A stretch of DNA of 64,000 nt from a virus: the IMG/VR virus record IMGVR_UViG_3300049460_000371, positions 1-64,000 of that record, one strand, 5' to 3'. Position numbers and translations under genes: made by a program. Positions 7,321 through 59,849 of the stretch are shown here, in pieces (the first letter of the stretch is position 1; every line of letters starts with the position of its first letter). The notes below the pieces were generated by a model. That model made no database searches and had not been told where the DNA came from. It saw only the letters and a program-made list of their open reading frames with translations.

Positions 7321-7738
7321 ATTCATATTGACGGTAATACTGCATGTGCTGGATAAATCTGGGCTCGTGCCTGTGATTCAGTATTGCTATGAAGAGGTGC
7401 CCTCCTTTGTGTCTCATATCTGGAATTGGTATTTCTGTCGCAATCCATTGAAGTGGTTCGATGAGTCAACAGAAATCATGATTCGTAATCATACCAAATG
7501 GCCAGGAAGATCCTTATTCCATTTGATCAAATATATACCCAAGCACGAAGGGGATATGGTTCTTTCTACGTATGATACCAATTGGGTCATTAAGCCCAAT
7601 TTGAAAGAGTGGTTGGCGGGAAATGGGCCAAACCAGTTTAAGGCACTGATCAACTTGGAAACAGGCGACATTCATGTGCGGGTCAAGTTTGCATCTGCGG
7701 ATGATGCCGTTATGTGTCGCCTGTTGTGGTCAGCTTAA
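7313..7738 (+). CDS. FKLTW-family protein with N-terminal hydrophobic segment
   Basis: A 141-aa protein; ATG is preferred over the GTG one codon upstream because GGGG lies 5-6 nt before it. The N-terminus is hydrophobic ([12 protein letters not shown]). 'LKEWLAGNG' is followed by [14 protein letters not shown] at the end. Its stop overlaps the stop of the opposite-strand gene by 4 nt (TTAA). Confidence 0.75.
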
Positions 7739-8061
7739 ACGCCGAATGAATTGCCGCAACCGCATGTGGTGGTTGCTTGTGGATTCTTGATGCTGAATTG
7801 ACTACCCATAAGGTCTTCCACATAGTCCACTACCGCGCCTTCCAGGTATTGGGCACTCATCGAATCGACCAAAAGTTCATGCGTGGTTTCACCCAGTTTA
7901 ATCTGAAAGTCGTCTTCATTAACCGCGTCGTCGAATGTGAAGCCGTAGCTAAAACCAGAACAGCCACCACCTTGAACAAAAATACGCAGACGTGTTCCTG
8001 CTGGCTCTGAAGCCAACAAGTCAATTACTTTTGTGGATGCTGCATCAGTTAGTGTTACCAT
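7735..8061 (-). CDS. erpA: A-type Fe-S cluster carrier, ErpA/IscA-like
   Basis: A 108-aa protein of the HesB/IscA/ErpA family at its usual length. The three metal-binding cysteines are present: Cys34 in [10 protein letters not shown] and Cys100/Cys102 in CGCGNSF. A-type carriers pass [2Fe-2S] or [4Fe-4S] clusters from the scaffold to apo-enzymes in the cytoplasm. It is a single reverse-strand gene inside a forward array, head-to-head with a second carrier. The ErpA assignment rather than IscA is tentative. Confidence 0.88.
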
Positions 8062-8105
8062 TTTGATCTCCTAAGTATGGGATCCTATTTAACGAGGTTT
8101 TGATA

Positions 8106-8423
8106 ATGATTACAATAACAGATTCAGCAATGCGTCATTTCTGCGAGATGATTTCTCGTAGCAAAGGCATGTGGCTGAAGCTCAGCGTGCGTCGTACTGG
8201 TTGCAGTGGGTACGCATATGCCCTGGAGCTAGTAAACGATTTGAGTGACGATCTCGTACCTCATGAGAGCAATGGCATTACGGTCCACATTCCAGAAAAA
8301 GACCAAGACATACTCCGTGGCCTTGAACTTGATTATCGTCGTGATGGGTTCTTTGATAATCTGGTCTTCAACAACCCCAATGCGAAATCGGAGTGCGGAT
8401 GCGGCGAATCATTCAGGCCATAA
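8106..8423 (+). CDS. second A-type Fe-S carrier-like protein
   Basis: A 105-aa protein; ATG is chosen over the upstream TTG because GAGG lies 8 nt before it. The IscA-fold signature is kept: Cys33 in RRTGCSGYAY and Cys97/Cys99 in ECGCGESF, with weak similarity elsewhere to the reverse-strand carrier. It diverges from that gene across a 44-nt gap. The next gene overlaps its end by 25 nt. Whether it carries clusters or acts on the ErpA-like partner is unknown. Confidence 0.85.
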   Translation: MITITDSAMRHFCEMISRSKGMWLKLSVRRTGCSGYAYALELVNDLSDDLVPHESNGITVHIPEKDQDILRGLELDYRRDGFFDNLVFNNPNAKSECGCGESFRP

Positions 8424-11109: not shown

Positions 11110-11505
11110 ATGAAAATCGAAATCATCGGTCTGGCACATGCAACGTTCAACGGCACCCGCGGCGAAGCTGGTGGCGCTCCTTCCAAAGACAGCATCTTCG
11201 GTCTGGCACTGATTCAAGGCAACGTCGTGACCTTCGGCGGCCGACGCGGTGGTACGCTGCGCTTCAAGACCTACAAGAAAGACCAGCTGGAAGCGCAAAA
11301 GGCGCGCTACAACGCCAAACTGTCGGGCAACCCGTTCGGCAAGCATATCGACGCCCACTACACCCCGGTCGCTGACACCGTGAAAGCTGAACTGCTCGGC
11401 ACCGACTTCGACGTCGAAGTAGTTGGCCGTGGCTTCTACAAAGCGATGTCGGCCAAGAAACTGAACACCTACAGCCGCCTGCCAAAAGCAGCTACCGCCG
11501 CCTAA
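11110..11505 (+). CDS. hypothetical basic protein, probably highly expressed
   Basis: A 131-aa protein with strong C/G-ending codon bias and its own promoter and terminator, which suggests high expression. The centre, VVTFGGRRGGTLRFKTYKKD, faintly resembles a WGR-type nucleic-acid module, but too little matches to name it. It ends in an Ala-rich tail. Confidence 0.8.
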   Translation: MKIEIIGLAHATFNGTRGEAGGAPSKDSIFGLALIQGNVVTFGGRRGGTLRFKTYKKDQLEAQKARYNAKLSGNPFGKHIDAHYTPVADTVKAELLGTDFDVEVVGRGFYKAMSAKKLNTYSRLPKAATAA

Positions 11506-11862: not shown

Positions 11863-11891
11863 TTGACGGGTAGTTCAGATGAATGTATAAT
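11863..11891 (+). promoter_or_regulatory. sigma70-like promoter, ATGAATG variant
   Basis: TTGACG, 17-bp spacer ending TTCAGATGAATG, consensus TATAAT. A leader of about 120 nt follows before the ART-like gene, with a second TATTAT-like box near 11990. Confidence 0.78.
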
Positions 11892-12018
11892 GATTCATAT
11901 GTGAGGATGTGCTGTTGTTCAGCTTCATAGCTGGTAAATTGAAGCGATGTAACATTCAGATAGCCTAGCTTTTGAAAATAAAACGTGTATTATTCTGAAC
12001 GGCAACGAGGATGAACTT

Positions 12019-12675
12019 ATGCTGGTGTATCATGGAACAAGCGAAGCCAACGTAGTGCAAATTCTGCAACAAGGCATAATGCCACGTTCATTAACTAGCC
12101 GTAGTAATTGGGCCCACACTGTTAAAAGTCATGAAGATGCGGTTTACCTTACGATCGCGTATCCTTTGCACTTTGCAAATCAAGCCTGTACGGACAAGGA
12201 GCGGTTAGCCGTTCTTGAAATTGATACTGACCTCCTGGATGAAGAGCGGTTGGTGGCAGATGAAGATGCAGTTGAACAAGCGCTGCGCGGCCACGACAAT
12301 CTACCAGTATCCTGGGGGATGAAACGTAGGACCAAGTATTACCGTGATCGTATTCACCAGTACCCACATGTGGGTAGTTTGAAAGCATTAGGCACTTGCG
12401 CGCATTTGGGCGTAATTGGCAAGCACGCAATCAAACGGGTGGCATATGTGAACCATGAAGCTTTCGTGCGTCTGGTATATAAAGGCTATGACCCTCAAGT
12501 AAGCGTTGCTGCTTACCAGGTAATAGGTGAAGGATACCAGAAGAGCACAAAATGGTTGTTCGACCCTGAAGAAGTCCAGCAAGAGTATTTGGATTTCGGA
12601 AATGGTTACAAGCATCCGCTGCTGCCAATAATAGATGACCGCGCTGGCATCAATGTTGAGTTAGTAGCAATTTAA
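12019..12675 (+). CDS. ADP-ribosyltransferase-fold protein (putative)
   Basis: A 218-aa protein. The start, LVYHGTSEANVVQILQQGIMP, matches the first motif of PARP/DarT-like ADP-ribosyltransferases, where the His of H-G-T-S binds NAD+. A Tyr in AVYLTIAY (near residue 43) and a following Glu-containing strand (LAVLEID) sit where the second and third motifs would be. If active it would move ADP-ribose from NAD+ to a host protein or nucleic acid. It stands alone behind its own promoter and long leader. The fold assignment is inferred from motif order only. Confidence 0.55.
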   Translation: MLVYHGTSEANVVQILQQGIMPRSLTSRSNWAHTVKSHEDAVYLTIAYPLHFANQACTDKERLAVLEIDTDLLDEERLVADEDAVEQALRGHDNLPVSWGMKRRTKYYRDRIHQYPHVGSLKALGTCAHLGVIGKHAIKRVAYVNHEAFVRLVYKGYDPQVSVAAYQVIGEGYQKSTKWLFDPEEVQQEYLDFGNGYKHPLLPIIDDRAGINVELVAI

Positions 12676-13741: not shown

Positions 13742-14224
13742 TTGCAAGATGCCGCAACACTTGAAGACTTTGCTGAACATACCGGCCAAGCTCCTCACCT
13801 ATATGTCTGGGAGATCAACTATTTTCCAGAACGCTCTCAACACCTGTTGACCTTACCTGAATGTCAATCACTCATCAATCTTATTTGGGTTGATCAGCTT
13901 CATCTACAAGGTGATCCGCCTGTCGTGCATGACGGCAGAGGGTCACGGTGCGCACGAACATTTGAGTCTCGCATCTATCTGCCTCGCTGGGCAAGAAATC
14001 CTATGGTTGTCATCCATGAGCTTGCGCACTGTGTAACTGACCTGTTCGATTCAGATGATAGTCAGGCACATGGGCCGCGTTATATGAAGGTCTACCTGTC
14101 ATTATGGGCCATCAACTCGTCATATAAATATCCAGCATTGCGCAAACACGCAAATCGCAATGGTCTTCGGGTTAGTCCGATAGACATGATGAAAAAGTTG
14201 AAAGGATTTCAAAGATGGAACTGA
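13742..14224 (+). CDS. SprT-like zinc metallopeptidase (putative)
   Basis: A 160-aa protein. HELAH (about residue 100) is the HExxH zinc-protease motif, followed 16 residues later by AHGPRYMKVY, the HGxxF-type third ligand of SprT-like proteases, which cut DNA-bound proteins. The start is unclear: a TTG at 13742 opens the frame without a ribosome site, whereas GAGG 8 nt before an ATG at 13726 starts a frame that hits TGA at codon 3. A +1 shift there would join M-S to E-F-L-L-Q. The next gene overlaps its end. Confidence 0.65.
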   Translation: MQDAATLEDFAEHTGQAPHLYVWEINYFPERSQHLLTLPECQSLINLIWVDQLHLQGDPPVVHDGRGSRCARTFESRIYLPRWARNPMVVIHELAHCVTDLFDSDDSQAHGPRYMKVYLSLWAINSSYKYPALRKHANRNGLRVSPIDMMKKLKGFQRWN

Positions 14225-18375: not shown

Positions 18376-18753
18376 ATGGGCAGCATTGTCACAATCAAAA
18401 TTTCGGGCGATTCGGATCAAGAACAGATGGCGGTATTGGGTCGAGTGACTCAGATGCTTGAGTATTTGGGAATCCAGGTCACATACGAACGATCCGAAGT
18501 CAGACAAGAACTTTTTCAGCATGCTGATACTTGGCGAGACAAGTTAGTTGAGTTGGCGCCAACCGTTCATGTTATTAAAGAACAGTCACAATCGACCATA
18601 CGCCAATCACCCACGACTGCTTGGCCGATATGGGCAAAAGAATGCGTCAAGGTGGAATCGTCGTATAATGAAAAATATGATGACGAAGCACGTCAGATAC
18701 AGATCACCCAACATATCTTGTCCCAGATTAAAAGTAGAAAGAAAACGCCATGA
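18376..18753 (+). CDS. hypothetical protein upstream of tyrS
   Basis: A 125-aa protein with GGAG 5 nt before the ATG. The start ([14 protein letters not shown], then [14 protein letters not shown]) suggests a ferredoxin-like alpha/beta module. It overlaps tyrS by 4 nt, so the two are co-translated. Function unknown. Confidence 0.75.
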
Positions 18754-19964
18754 TTGATAACGATATCCTGAATGCTCTCACGCTCATCAAGTGTGGTGCG
18801 GTTGATTTGCTGGTCGAAGAAGACTTTGTGAAGAAGTTGGTAAAGAGCCGTGACGAATGTATGCCGCTCAGGATCAAACTGGGCTTTGACCCAACTGCTC
18901 CAGACTTGCACCTTGGACACACCGTGGTGCTGAACAAATTGCGCACGCTACAAGACCTCGGTCACGAGGTAACGGTGCTGATTGGTGACTTTACGGCTAT
19001 GATTGGTGACCCGACTGGGCGTAACAGCACTCGTCCACCGCTAACCTCCGAGCAAGTGGAAGAGAACGCCACGACTTACGTGCGTCAAGTGCGCAAGATC
19101 ATGAATCTGGAAACTGGCTTCATGACGCGTTACAACTCCGAATGGTGCGGTAAGTTGGGTGCGAAGGGCATGATCGAACTGTCCAGCAAGTACACGGTGG
19201 CCAGGATGCTGGAACGTGACGACTTCACGAAACGCTTCAAGGGCAATATGTCAATTTCCATCCACGAATTCCTGTACCCATTGATGCAGGGCTACGATTC
19301 CGTGGCATTGCGTTCGGATCTGGAACTTGGTGGTACTGATCAGAAATTCAATCTGTTGGTGGGCCGTGAGCTTCAGAAAGCCTACGGCCGCGAGCAGCAG
19401 TGCATCCTCACTATGCCTTTGCTGGTGGGCTTGGACGGCATCGACAAGATGTCCAAGAGTAAGAACAACTACATCGGCATTACTGAAGACGCGAATACGA
19501 TCTTCAGCAAAGTCATGCGTATCAACGACGACATGATGGTGAACTACTACGAATTGTTGTCGTGGAAGACGTCCTCTGAGATTCAACAAGTACGTCAGCA
19601 GGTATTGAGCGGAGTGAATCCTCGTGATCTGAAAGTTGAACTCGCCAAAGAGCTGGTGACTCGTTTTCACGATGCACCGTCGGCTGATGCTGCATTGGCT
19701 GACTTTATGCTTCGGGCAGCTGGTGGTATCCCGGACGTAATCCCAGAGGTCACGTACACACATCGTGACATCAATGTGCGCCTCACTAACATCCTGAAAC
19801 TTACGGGGCTGTGTTCCAGTGCTAGCGATGCAACTCGCAAGATTGACGGCCGTGGTGTGAAAGTTGATGGTGAACTGATCACGCAAACTGATACCATTCT
19901 GGGTACTGGTACGTTCGTTTTGCAGGTGGGCAAGCGTAGTTTTATGAGAGTAACTCTGGAATGA
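18750..19964 (+). CDS. tyrS: tyrosyl-tRNA synthetase
   Basis: A full-length 404-aa class I synthetase charging tRNA-Tyr with tyrosine. The HIGH motif is HLGH (54-57) after GFDPTAPD. The KMSKS motif is intact near 232-236. An S4 RNA-binding domain closes the protein ([23 protein letters not shown]). The length and motifs match the proteobacterial TyrS branch. No tRNA gene was found in this window. The phage may secure charging during infection or replace a host enzyme targeted by defence; both are inferences. Confidence 0.95.
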
Positions 19965-26716: not shown

Positions 26717-27391
26717 ATGAAAAGAATTATTGAAATAAGAGGAGCTGAGGGCGGAGCCGATGCTCGACTGTTCGCTGCCGATCTGGCAAAAGCATACATC
26801 AAGCACGCATCCCGCGTCGGATGAATCAATCACCTCACCGATAACGGTGACGGCAATATCACCATCGAAATAACTGGTGATGATCTCTCAAAACTAGACA
26901 ATGAAGCAGGCGGACATCGCATCCAGCGTGTGCCACCAACTGAACGCAAAGGTCGCGTCCACACCAGTACGGTAACCGTATCTGTGGTCGAACCCAAGAA
27001 AGCTCAGACTATCGAGTTCAATGAAAAAGACTTCTCGATTGAATGGTATTCTGGTACAGGTGCTGGTGGGCAACATCGCAACAAACATCAGAACTCATGT
27101 CGCATCACACACTTGGCTTCAGGTATTGTTGCTACTGCACAAACGAGAAGTCGCATCAACTCGTTGGATGAGGCAAAGACTGCCATCTTGGCAAAGTTGA
27201 ATGCTGGTGCTTCAGCGGATGAGCAATCGCGGCAATCAAGTGAACGATTGAGTCAAACTGGTTCCGGTATGCGTGGCGACAAGACTCGCACTTACCGTTT
27301 CCAGGAAGATCAAGTGAAGGATCACATGACGGACAAATCAGCTTCCATCAGTAAAGTAATGGCTGGTAATTTTCACTTGCTCTGGCGTTAA
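26717..27391 (+). CDS. RF1-type peptide chain release factor with in-frame UGA
   Basis: A 225-codon frame (CAAGGAGC before the ATG). It covers release-factor domains 2-4 and lacks the N-terminal helical domain. GAGGQHRNKHQNS holds the catalytic GGQ. QRVPPTERKGRVHTS has Pro-Pro-Thr at the tripeptide anticodon, the PxT form of RF1 (UAA/UAG readers). Codon 36 (26822-26824) is TGA and, from memory of E. coli RF1, aligns without gaps to the Trp of its ARRWRVE segment. The first 13 codons are recoded relative to 25722. Readthrough, reinitiation or a pseudogene are the options. Confidence 0.8.
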
Positions 27392-53954: not shown

Positions 53955-56015
53955 ATGACGGCCAAGATCAAGAAGGAAATGGCAGCGCTGGCCAAAGAGG
54001 TAGCGCGCCATCAAAAGCTGTATTACGAGGAGAATGACCCCGTAATTACGGACGGCGAGTACGACGTCATGTATCGCCAACTGGTGGATCTGGAAGAGCA
54101 GTATCCCCAGTACAAAGTAAAGAACTCGCCAACCGACAACATCGGCGGCAAACCGTCCGGCACCTTCACGGAGATCAAGCACCTGATCCCCATGCTGAGC
54201 CTGGGCAATAGTCTGAACGCGGCCGACACCCAGGTGTTCCTGGATAAAGTATGCGCCGAACTGAAGATCAAACCGGCCGCCCTCGAGCTGTACGAAGAAC
54301 TCAAGTACGACGGCCTGTCGTGCTCTGCCACTTACCTGTATGGTAAGCTGGAACAAGGCGCCACTCGCGGTGACGGTCTGACCGGCGAAGACATCACGGC
54401 CAACCTGAAAACTGTCCAAAACGTCCCACACGTCATCAACGAGCTCTTGGAAGTACCGCGCTTCGAGATTCGCGGCGAGGTACTGATGACGCGTGCGAGC
54501 TTCAAAGCCCTGAACGAACGTCAGGCCAAGCTCGGTGGCAAGATCTTCAGCAATCCCCGCAATGCGGCCGCAGGTGCGCTGCGCAATAGCGACCCGGAGA
54601 TCACTCGCGAGCGTGGACTGCACTTCTACGCCTACAGCCTGGGCGCATGCAGCGACGAAATCTATCCAAAAGTTGACGGCGGCATTTCGCCTGATCCATT
54701 CGGCGTGACCACGCAAGAGCAACTGCTGGCCAAGTTCGTCAGCCTGGGCTTTGTGACGGCTAGCGACCTGAAAGTCGTAACTGCTGACAAGGTGCTGGAA
54801 AGCTTCAAGGAAATTCAAGCCAAGCGTCCCGACCTGCCATACGAAATCGACGGCGTGGTATACAAGGTCAACAAGCTGGCCTATCAAGTTCAGCTGGGCT
54901 GGAAGTCGCGCACGCCTGAATGGGCAACCGCGTACAAGTTCCCGCCTGACACTGCTGAAACGGTGCTGCTGGCCATCGACATCCAGGTAGGTCGTACTGG
55001 TGCGCAGGCGCCGGTTGCTCGTGTAAAACCGGTCAAGTGCGGCGGGGTGATCGTAACCAACATCACCCTGCACAACATCGAAGAGATCACGCGCAAAGAT
55101 ATCCGCATTGGCGACACGCTGCTGATTATGCGTAACGGCGATGTGATTCCTGGTGTCAGCCATGTTATCAAGGACAAGCGCCCGGCAAACGCTGTCCCGT
55201 ATGAAATGCCAGGCGTTTGCCCATCCTGCGGCGGCGCTACCCACAAGGAAGACGACGGTGCGATCACGTATTGCCTCGCCGGCCTTGGCTGTCCTGCTCA
55301 AGTGTTGGGTGCAATTTCCCACTACGTTTCGCGCAAGGCCATGGACATTGACGGCATTGGCGACTCGACCATTCAGACGCTGCTGGATGCCAACCTGATC
55401 AAGATGCCAAGCGATCTGTACTCGCTGAAAAAAGAAGACGTGCTGGGCCTGGAAGGCTTTGGTGAGTCGTCGGCGGAGTTGCTGGTGAACGGCGTGCATG
55501 CGATCAAGAAACCAGAATTGCGTCGCTTCATTTACGCGCTGGGCATTCCCAATACGGGCGAGGGCACCAGCAAGCGCTTGGCTGAGCACTTCGGTTCGTT
55601 TGACAAGTTGCTGGCCGCAGCACACAATGAACTGATGGCGATCCCGGACATCGGCAAAACGACCGCCAGCAGCATAAGTGACTACCTGTTCGACCCAGTA
55701 ACGGGCGTGGAAGCGCGCAAGCTGGCTAAGATCCTGGAGCCTCAAGATCTGGTCAAGGTCGACACCAGCGTGATGAAGCTGAAAGGTCAAACGTTCCTGG
55801 TCACTGGTACGCTGTCAGTGAAGCGCGACGTGATCCATAAGCTCATCGAAGAAAACGGCGGTGTGGTCGCTGGCTCGGTGAACAAGGATCTCAACTACTT
55901 GCTGGCTGGTGAAGAAGCGGGTAGCAAGCTGGAGAAAGCTGAGAAATTGAACGGCAGCAAAAAGGCAAATATCAGTATCATTACGGAAGAAATTTTCCGC
56001 TCAATGATCGCATAA
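53955..56015 (+). CDS. ligA: NAD+-dependent DNA ligase
   Basis: A full-length 686-aa enzyme sealing DNA nicks with NAD+. Domain order is complete: Ia (YYxxxDPxxxDxEYD-like start), nucleotidyl transferase with Lys117 in ELKYDGLS, OB fold, four-cysteine zinc finger (CPSCGG ... CLAGLGCP), helix-hairpin-helix repeats (DIDGIGDSTI, LEGFGESSAE, ALGIPNTG, IPDIGKTTA) and a BRCT domain at the end (LKGQTFLVTGTLSVKRD). GC-rich codons differ from the gene before, which may mean a separate acquisition or higher expression. Confidence 0.96.
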   Translation: MTAKIKKEMAALAKEVARHQKLYYEENDPVITDGEYDVMYRQLVDLEEQYPQYKVKNSPTDNIGGKPSGTFTEIKHLIPMLSLGNSLNAADTQVFLDKVCAELKIKPAALELYEELKYDGLSCSATYLYGKLEQGATRGDGLTGEDITANLKTVQNVPHVINELLEVPRFEIRGEVLMTRASFKALNERQAKLGGKIFSNPRNAAAGALRNSDPEITRERGLHFYAYSLGACSDEIYPKVDGGISPDPFGVTTQEQLLAKFVSLGFVTASDLKVVTADKVLESFKEIQAKRPDLPYEIDGVVYKVNKLAYQVQLGWKSRTPEWATAYKFPPDTAETVLLAIDIQVGRTGAQAPVARVKPVKCGGVIVTNITLHNIEEITRKDIRIGDTLLIMRNGDVIPGVSHVIKDKRPANAVPYEMPGVCPSCGGATHKEDDGAITYCLAGLGCPAQVLGAISHYVSRKAMDIDGIGDSTIQTLLDANLIKMPSDLYSLKKEDVLGLEGFGESSAELLVNGVHAIKKPELRRFIYALGIPNTGEGTSKRLAEHFGSFDKLLAAAHNELMAIPDIGKTTASSISDYLFDPVTGVEARKLAKILEPQDLVKVDTSVMKLKGQTFLVTGTLSVKRDVIHKLIEENGGVVAGSVNKDLNYLLAGEEAGSKLEKAEKLNGSKKANISIITEEIFRSMIA

Positions 56016-58547: not shown

Positions 58548-59849
58548 ATGAAACAGAATATTGTCATTGTGGGTGGCGGTGCTGGTGGCTTGGAACTGGC
58601 TTGCAAACTGGGCCGAAAACTTGGTCCCGATAGCGTCACACTGGTTGATAGCCGGTTGACCCATATCTGGAAGCCATCCTTGCACGAAGTTGCAGCAGGC
58701 ACCCTGGACGTTCATGCCGAAGGGCTATCGTATCAGATGCTCGCGCATGACAATGGTTTCACGTTCGTGTATGGTGCAATGTCGGCTCTGAACAAGGGCA
58801 ACAAAACCATCCAAGTCGACGCAGTGTTGACCGACAAGGAGATCGTGTTGATCCCTGAACGCGTCATCGCATTCTCGGATCTGGTCATTGCTGTCGGCAG
58901 TGTATCCAACTACTTCAATGTTCCAGGTGCGTCGACCAATACTATCGCATTGAATGCTCCGGAAGACGCAGAAGCATTCAGGAACAAGATGATGCGTCAT
59001 CTCCATTACGCAAACGGCCCTATGCGCCGTGATACCGCGGAAGATGCTGGTGTTGATATCGTGATCATTGGCGGCGGCGCTACGGGTGTTGAGCTGGCCG
59101 CTGAGCTGTCCGAAGCTCGCAATGAATTCGCGGCATACGGCGTTCACAACCTGGATGCCAAGAAATCCCTCCGCCTCACCATCCTGGAAGGTTCGCCGCG
59201 TGTGCTGGCTCCTTTGCCTGAACGCGTCAGCGAAGCAGCTGACAAGCTGTTGAAACTTCGCGATGTTACGGTGAAAACTGGCTGTCGTGTGGTTGACATT
59301 ACTTCCACGCTGGTAACTGATTCCACGGGCCAGACGTACAAGGCTGACATCACGGTTTGGGCCGCTGGTATCAAGGCTCCTGACTTCCTGGCTACGTTGG
59401 GCTTGCCTACTGCTCGCAGTGGTGCTCTGATCGTTGACGGCAAGCTGCGCGTTGACGAGGCATATCACATCTATGCTTTGGGTGACTGTGCGTCGTTTAC
59501 TGACAAGGATGGCAAGATGGCCCCGCCGCGTGCGCAAACGGCTCACCAGCAAGCCGACTATCTGTATGATCGTTTCATGGCCTTTGCGAATGGTCGCCCA
59601 GCATCCGTGAAGGATTACCAGTACAAGGACTACGGTTCGTTGGTCTCGATCGGCCATAGCACTTCAGTGGGTAACCTGATGGGATCACTGGCCGGTCGTT
59701 GGTTCATCGAAGGTTGGTTTGCTCGCATCATGTATGTGAGCTTGCACCTGTTGCATCACCGTGCAATCTTGGGCACGATCCGCACTGGCATATTAGCACT
59801 TGCCCGCTTCCTGATCAAACGCACCGCACCTCTTGTGAAATTGCACTAA
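58548..59849 (+). CDS. ndh: type II NADH:quinone oxidoreductase
   Basis: A full-length 433-aa flavoprotein of the NDH-2 family. The FAD-binding GGGAGG is at 9-14, the NADH-binding IIGGGATGVELAAEL near 173-187, and the second FAD motif YALGDCA near 308. The hydrophobic C-terminal segment (about 385-420) would attach it to the inner membrane. It moves electrons from NADH to quinone without pumping protons. The whole length and motifs are kept, so it is likely functional. Overlaps the next gene. Confidence 0.93.
   Translation: MKQNIVIVGGGAGGLELACKLGRKLGPDSVTLVDSRLTHIWKPSLHEVAAGTLDVHAEGLSYQMLAHDNGFTFVYGAMSALNKGNKTIQVDAVLTDKEIVLIPERVIAFSDLVIAVGSVSNYFNVPGASTNTIALNAPEDAEAFRNKMMRHLHYANGPMRRDTAEDAGVDIVIIGGGATGVELAAELSEARNEFAAYGVHNLDAKKSLRLTILEGSPRVLAPLPERVSEAADKLLKLRDVTVKTGCRVVDITSTLVTDSTGQTYKADITVWAAGIKAPDFLATLGLPTARSGALIVDGKLRVDEAYHIYALGDCASFTDKDGKMAPPRAQTAHQQADYLYDRFMAFANGRPASVKDYQYKDYGSLVSIGHSTSVGNLMGSLAGRWFIEGWFARIMYVSLHLLHHRAILGTIRTGILALARFLIKRTAPLVKLH

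What the first reader, a model, noticed from the sequence alone, without database searches (positions are those of the whole stretch)
12019..12675. ADP-ribosyltransferase-like protein with a long leader
HGTS start and following Tyr and Glu strands fit NAD+-dependent transferases. The gene stands alone with a leader of about 120 nt, which suggests separate control. Possible host reprogramming effector.
Basis: inference. Interest (0 to 1): 0.65.

Follow-up and report, generated by a model that had tools for sequence, protein, structure and literature searches.

The report
Phage ADP-ribosyltransferase-like family lacking catalytic glutamate
This gene of a large bacterial virus encodes a protein folded like enzymes that use NAD+ to attach ADP-ribose to other molecules; it belongs to an uncharacterised family found almost only in phages, which keeps most of the usual active site but lacks the usual catalytic glutamate and carries its own invariant acidic motif instead.

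Summary
The ORF at 12019-12675 (+) is a real gene in an 87-kb virus record. Relatives lie in about 65 IMG/VR viral contigs; the closest is 43% identical, on a 524-kb contig, with conserved neighbours. AlphaFold2 gives a confident model (pLDDT 92, pTM 0.88), and every leading PDB match is an ADP-ribosyltransferase (DarT1, toxin ARTs, Tpt1/KptA), though TM-scores are low (query-normalised below 0.5). Of the H-Y-E triad, His5 and Tyr43 are invariant in 50 relatives. The position aligned with DarT1's catalytic Glu152 is Asn, Thr or Ser in 47 of 50 and never acidic. Instead there is an invariant acidic motif, [P/A]DED-x2-EQ, at the start of the loop that binds acceptors in other ARTs. It is not a DarT, KptA or PARP member; it is a separate family, probably active. 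Target and role (host takeover or anti-defence) are unproven. The leader of about 120 nt is real, but its promoter is one of 14 copies of a repeated phage promoter, and the lone-gene layout is not conserved. New variant of a known kind, moderate interest.

The parts
12019..12675 (+). CDS, 218 aa, ADP-ribosyltransferase-fold protein
12028..12039 (+). Y4-H5-G6-T7, first ART motif (NAD+-binding His) on strand 1
   Evidence: Y4, H5, G6 in 50/50 and T7 in 48/50 relatives
12085..12087 (+). Arg23, aligned with DarT1 Arg35 (NAD+ contact in DarT1)
   Evidence: 48/50 relatives; HMMER alignment; role in DarT1 from PMC11543638
12142..12153 (+). V42-Y43-L44-T45, second ART motif (nicotinamide-stacking Tyr), strand 41-45
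   Evidence: Y43 in 50/50 relatives; model
12217..12219 (+). Glu67 on strand 63-69, alternative candidate acid
   Evidence: 45/50 relatives
12256..12279 (+). A80-D81-E82-D83-A84-V85-E86-Q87, family signature at the end of strand 78-80 and start of helix 82-89 (acceptor-loop region); candidate replacement acids
   Evidence: D81 50/50, E82 49/50, D83 47/50, E86 49/50, Q87 46/50
12394..12396 (+). Thr126, start of strand 126-130, place of the canonical catalytic Glu
   Evidence: aligned with DarT1 Glu152; N25 T20 S2 A1 I1 C1 in 50 relatives
11863..11891 (+). Promoter TTGACG-17-TATAAT, a copy of the repeated phage promoter TTGAY-N5-GTTCATTTGAA-N2-TATAAT
11898..12018 (+). Leader of about 121 nt (start site inferred from the promoter)
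   Evidence: no stable fold, no Rfam family
12007..12010 (+). GAGG, ribosome-binding site, 8 nt before the ATG
   Evidence: sequence

Best explanation
The gene encodes a cytoplasmic, NAD+-using ADP-ribosyltransferase of the H-Y branch, made inside the infected cell from a phage promoter. Shown by computation: an ART-like fold, the invariant His and Tyr that hold NAD+ in this branch, and conserved Arg23. Also shown: the canonical catalytic Glu is replaced by Asn/Thr, and an invariant [P/A]DED-x2-EQ motif sits where other ARTs contact the acceptor. Inferred: one or more of D81, E82 and E86 (or E67) takes over oxocarbenium stabilisation and acceptor activation. The enzyme then transfers a single ADP-ribose from NAD+ to a host macromolecule, either to redirect host functions or to disable a defence component. 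Which target, and whether protein or nucleic acid, is unknown.
For: AF2 model pLDDT 92.1, pTM 0.88, and an independent relative, L058, pLDDT 93.0, pTM 0.90 with the same order of strands and helices over the ART core. Every PDB match listed is an ART, some of them bound to Rhs immunity proteins; the window model's best is DarT1 8baq, E 3e-4. Sequence profile to DarT1 E 1.2e-4 and to Tpt1/KptA E 1.2e-3. Profile-profile match to six plasmid-borne DarT1 relatives, 83% probability over 143 columns (74% in a re-run). H5, Y43 and D81 invariant in 50 relatives, E82 and E86 in 49. Outgroup ARTs (phage G gp53, gp123, LR756508) have Gln at the position of Thr126, and gp53 and gp123 lack E86 (E86 placement by eye), as expected if the acid moved. 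Precedent: AcrIF11, a phage ART whose activity needs H20/Y46 and an Asp/Glu pair in a loop (PMC12421852), and PARPs that lack the Glu yet stay active (PMC10789625).
Against: TM-scores to solved ARTs are low (query-normalised at most 0.43 and target-normalised at most 0.53 in the window search), so the fold call rests on Foldseek probability, sequence motifs and topology rather than close superposition. The C-terminal part of the DarT1 alignment, which places Thr126, is much weaker than the N-terminal part. No activity data exist. There is no dedicated partner gene and no macrodomain or NADAR in the own record.
Confidence: 0.6

Rival explanations
1. It is an NADase or NAD+-binding protein rather than a transferase: it hydrolyses or sequesters NAD+ or ADP-ribose signals during infection, for instance to interfere with NAD+-based host defence.
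For: Canonical Glu is absent in all 50 relatives. Some phage ARTs are predicted to degrade NAD+ (PMC9503650). NAD+-related genes occur beside or in some relatives: nadD 0.6 kb upstream of the Paenibacillus pSC2 member, NADAR genes in five of 19 records searched.
Against: The acceptor-side loop motif is the most conserved part after HGT and VYLT, which a plain NADase would not need. No NAD+-metabolism gene was noted among the near neighbours in the window.
Confidence: 0.17
2. It is an RNA-end or nucleic-acid enzyme related to Tpt1/KptA or DarT: it puts ADP-ribose on RNA or DNA ends or bases, in RNA repair or nucleic-acid tagging.
For: Nearest sequence relatives in the PDB are DarT1 and Tpt1/KptA, both acting on nucleic acids. 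KptA also lacks a Glu at this place (sequence). Conserved Arg90, Arg104 and Arg109 follow the motif.
Against: The N-terminal lobe of KptA (about 95 residues before HGT) is absent. DarT1's Glu152 is missing. Median family pI is 6.1, not basic. Pfam scores stay below the cut-off for the window protein.
Confidence: 0.15
3. It is a catalytically dead ART-like fold kept as a binding protein.
For: Canonical Glu lost; one distant member (LR756511) has also lost the HGT histidine and D81, so decay does happen.
Against: H5, Y43, D81, E82 and E86 are kept in 49-50 of 50 sequences at 25-45% identity; dN/dS below 1 in nine close pairs.
Confidence: 0.06

Closest known systems
DarT1 (E. coli C7, PDB 8baq), guanine-specific DNA ADP-ribosyltransferase
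   Same: Best PDB fold match of the window model and best PDB profile match; HxT strand followed by an Arg aligned with DarT1 Arg35; profile-profile alignment over 143 columns.
   Different: No Glu152 equivalent (Thr/Asn); VYLT in place of ICLS; acceptor loop PDED-x2-EQ instead of the HNAA motif with the base-binding Asn; no linked NADAR antitoxin.
Tpt1/KptA RNA 2'-phosphotransferase
   Same: LYHGT...GL.P motif, V[H/Y]L[S/T] strand, no catalytic Glu at strand 5.
   Different: Lacks the N-terminal lobe; Tyr replaces the second His; NGVWL motif not present; has PDED-x2-EQ.
PARP catalytic domain (PF00644)
   Same: H-G-T and Tyr motif positions; 17 of 50 relatives match weakly, best E 9e-5.
   Different: Third residue Glu absent; window protein 15.6 bits against a cut-off of 26.7; no regulatory domains.
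AcrIF11, phage anti-CRISPR ADP-ribosyltransferase
   Same: Phage-encoded, small, His and Tyr plus an acidic Asp-Glu pair in a loop needed for activity (PMC12421852).
   Different: No sequence match found in the PDB profile search, which holds solved chains only; acidic pair comes late in the sequence (D115/E116), not after strand 4.
PHROG 13493 and 11974 (unknown function); phage G gp53, Vibrio phage nt-1 protein R9TEX3
   Same: 41 of 50 relatives match PHROG 13493, best E 2.8e-14; gp53 and R9TEX3 are among the best viral fold matches.
   Different: gp53 and gp123 have Gln at the third catalytic place and lack E86. The 2022 survey counts at least 10 ARTs in phage G (PMC9503650) but the text read here does not name this family.

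Membership tests
ADP-ribosyltransferase superfamily | Split beta-sheet ART fold | tested here: met
   AF2 models of two relatives; all listed PDB matches are ARTs, probability up to 1.00, but query-normalised TM-scores below 0.5
ADP-ribosyltransferase superfamily | NAD+ use | not testable with these tools
   Needs an assay
H-Y-[EDQ] clade | His of HG[T/S] and Tyr of the second strand | tested here: met
   50/50 for both
H-Y-[EDQ] clade | Glu, Asp or Gln at the third place | tested here: not met
   N25 T20 S2 A1 I1 C1; placement, weaker in the C-terminal half
DarT (PF14487) | Score over the family cut-off | tested here: not met
   No DarT match; 3 of 50 relatives at best E 0.012
DarT (PF14487) | Catalytic Glu (E152 DarT1 / E160 DarT2) | tested here: not met
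   Thr126
DarT (PF14487) | Linked macrodomain or NADAR antitoxin | tested here: not met
   None in the own 87-kb record; no recurrent neighbour; the record may be a fragment
Tpt1/KptA (PF01885) | N-terminal lobe before the ART domain | tested here: not met
   HGT begins at residue 5; KptA has about 95 residues before it
Tpt1/KptA (PF01885) | Second His (VHL[S/T]) | tested here: not met
   Tyr43 in 50/50
PARP (PF00644) | Score over the family cut-off | tested here: not met
   15.6 of 26.7 bits
N4-like phage ARTs | Family match in phage N4 | tested here: not met
   No match of the family profile in the N4 genome

The most novel reading that the evidence does not exclude
A phage-specific ART clade in which the catalytic glutamate has been lost from strand 5 and its work taken over by an invariant [P/A]DED-x2-EQ motif in the acceptor loop, giving a joint NAD+- and acceptor-activating centre used against one conserved host target or defence component.
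Probability: 0.35. Interest if true: 0.68.

Novelty: new variant of a known kind. Interest (0 to 1): 0.45.

Why it matters
ARTs are among the commonest enzymes that large phages turn on their hosts, yet most have no assigned target. This family is found on about 65 viral contigs, has a clear signature and a confident model, and lacks the residue usually used to recognise active ARTs, so motif-based surveys may overlook it or call it dead. If active, it would show another way of arranging ART catalysis, an issue the field lists as open for PARPs without the glutamate (PMC10789625).

Tried and rejected
Chance ORF: rejected (homologues, synteny, dN/dS). KptA, DarT, PARP and N4-like membership: tested and not met. 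Toxin-antitoxin pair: no macrodomain or NADAR in the own record and no conserved neighbour; phage G gp122-gp123 (macrodomain next to a distant ART) is the only such pair seen. Riboswitch or structured leader: no Rfam match, fold z = 0.37. Cellular origin: two genome-contig scans gave no relative, though these scans reach close relatives only; plasmids gave two relatives, on 510-kb and 722-kb Paenibacillaceae plasmids. The genome search cannot draw kin for a virus record nor be centred on E. coli, so no wide genome survey was made. First promoter pattern had wrong spacing; corrected.

Full report
The gene. The window is the first 64 kb of an 87,353-base virus record. The ORF at 12019-12675 (+) is exactly as described: 218 codons, ATG start, GAGG site 8 nt upstream. 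Its closest relative lies on a 523,836-base viral contig (L001, 43% identity, E 3e-54). Comparing the ORF lists by eye, several neighbours are also kept: 12808 with L001 6838, 13742 (weakly SprT-like) with L001 8838, 14215 with L001 9343, 15082 with L001 4822. Further scans brought the family to about 65 viral contigs, 18 of 66 tabulated ones at least 100 kb long. Nothing was found in 84,980 prokaryote genomes by the two pattern scans. In nine pairs of close relatives dN/dS is 0.20-0.60.

Sequence evidence for the class. The window protein alone is at the edge of detection: PARP E 0.012, KptA in NCBIfam E 0.1, DarT1 in the PDB E 0.47. With 50 aligned relatives (A5) the picture clears: PARP, KptA and DarT are the Pfam families matched by most members (17, 15 and 3), and the profile finds DarT1 in the PDB at E 1.2e-4 and Tpt1/KptA at E 1.2e-3. 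PHROG 13493, of unknown function, is matched by 41 of 50.

Fold. AlphaFold2 gave pLDDT 92.1 and pTM 0.88. An independent relative (L058) gave 93.0 and 0.90 with the same order of elements over the core. All listed Foldseek matches in the PDB are ARTs, some solved with Rhs immunity partners: DarT1 first for the window model (E 3e-4, probability 1.00), with toxin ARTs and Tpt1; the relative gives the same set with toxin ARTs first and DarT1 at rank 22. Query-normalised TM-scores are below 0.5, so the fold is ART-like but divergent. Among viral models the best are Vibrio phage nt-1 R9TEX3 and several phage G proteins.

Active site. In 50 relatives H5, Y43 and D81 are invariant; E82 and E86 are present in 49, R23 in 48, D83 in 47, Q87 in 46. 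R23 aligns with DarT1 Arg35 in the HMMER alignment (allowing for a one-residue offset in numbering), an NAD+ contact in the crystal structure (PMC11543638). Profile-profile alignment with six plasmid-borne DarT1 relatives (L122-L127) puts the catalytic glutamate of the QAE motif opposite Thr126, the first residue of strand 126-130. That column is N in 25, T in 20, S in 2, A, I and C in one each, never acidic. This C-terminal part of the alignment is weaker than the rest and drops out at stricter settings. Distant relatives (phage G gp53 and gp123, LR756508) have Gln there; gp53 and gp123 lack E86, read by eye.

Mechanism. ARTs need the H-Y pair to hold NAD+, and usually a Glu to stabilise the oxocarbenium ion (PMC10789625). 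PARPs without that Glu can be active (same source). AcrIF11 is a phage ART in which an Asp/Glu pair in a loop, with His and Tyr, is needed (PMC12421852). By analogy, the DED-x2-EQ motif, at the end of strand 4 and the start of the acceptor loop, is proposed to supply the acid. The position corresponds roughly to the loop that holds the base-binding Asn104 in DarT1 (PMC11543638), so a role in acceptor choice is likely too.

Context and control. The promoter at 11863-11891 is one of 14 plus-strand copies of a 29-bp element TTGAY-N5-GTTCATTTGAA-N2-TATAAT (11 copies at up to three mismatches against 0 in 100 shuffles; 14). In most copies the start codon lies 21-29 nt after the -10 box; here it is 127 nt, and 75 nt for the gene at 11110. 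So control is shared with other genes, while the leader is unusual. It has no stable structure, and in roughly half of the relatives the gene directly follows or overlaps an upstream ORF. No neighbour recurs across the family except in small subsets. No macrodomain or NADAR is in the own record. There is no sign of packaging with head genes near 12 kb; expression in the infected cell is the simpler reading (inference).

Known or new. ARTs are known to be frequent in jumbo phages, and phage G alone has at least ten (PMC9503650). This family is thus a new variant of a known kind: ART-like fold and H-Y pair, no canonical Glu, its own invariant acidic motif. Membership in DarT, KptA, PARP and N4-like families was tested and not met.

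Noticed in passing
window 228, 960, 11006, 11863, 15024, 16950, 29508, 32343, 35560, 36258, 39790, 40713, 44052, 57023 (+): Repeated phage promoter TTGAY-N5-GTTCATTTGAA-N2-TATAAT with a TTCA-N2-TGAA palindrome between the -35 and -10 boxes, possibly an operator; a similar element at six or seven sites in L001.
   Followed up: partly
window 11907-11930 (+): Seven-codon ATG mini-ORF MCCCSAS in the leader, with GAGG directly before it.
   Followed up: no
window 18750-19964 (+): Phage-encoded tyrosyl-tRNA synthetase-like protein (PF00579, E 1.6e-73, plus S4 domain).
   Followed up: no
window 58548-59849 (+): Pyridine nucleotide-disulphide oxidoreductase, type II NADH dehydrogenase-like (the finer name is a reading by eye), unusual for a phage.
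   Followed up: no
window 7735-8061 (-) and 8100-8423 (+): Two iron-sulphur cluster assembly (IscA/ErpA-type, PF01521) genes in opposite orientation.
   Followed up: no
window 26930-27391 (+): Small RF-1 domain protein with GGQ motif (PF00472), possibly a ribosome-rescue factor.
   Followed up: no
window 13973-14064 (+): ARAGORN calls tRNA-Asp inside the ORF 13742-14224; probably spurious, as Rfam finds no tRNA.
   Followed up: partly
window 53955-56015 (+): Protein of 686 aa that reads as an NAD+-dependent DNA ligase (LigA-like, by eye), another NAD+ user in the same phage.
   Followed up: no
L019:1631-3130 (phage G gp122-gp123): Macrodomain gene next to a distant ART-like gene with Gln at the third catalytic place; resembles a DarTG-like pair.
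   Followed up: partly
L016 (LR756511, 595-kb phage): Family member with IGT in place of HGT and without D81; probably a dead copy.
   Followed up: partly
L129:705-2699 (Paenibacillus plasmid pSC2): Family member on a 510-kb plasmid, 0.6 kb downstream of nadD; a second one on a 722-kb Aneurinibacillus plasmid.
   Followed up: partly
L057, L075, L103: Family members with C-terminal extensions (proteins of 490, 367 and 378 aa), function unknown.
   Followed up: no
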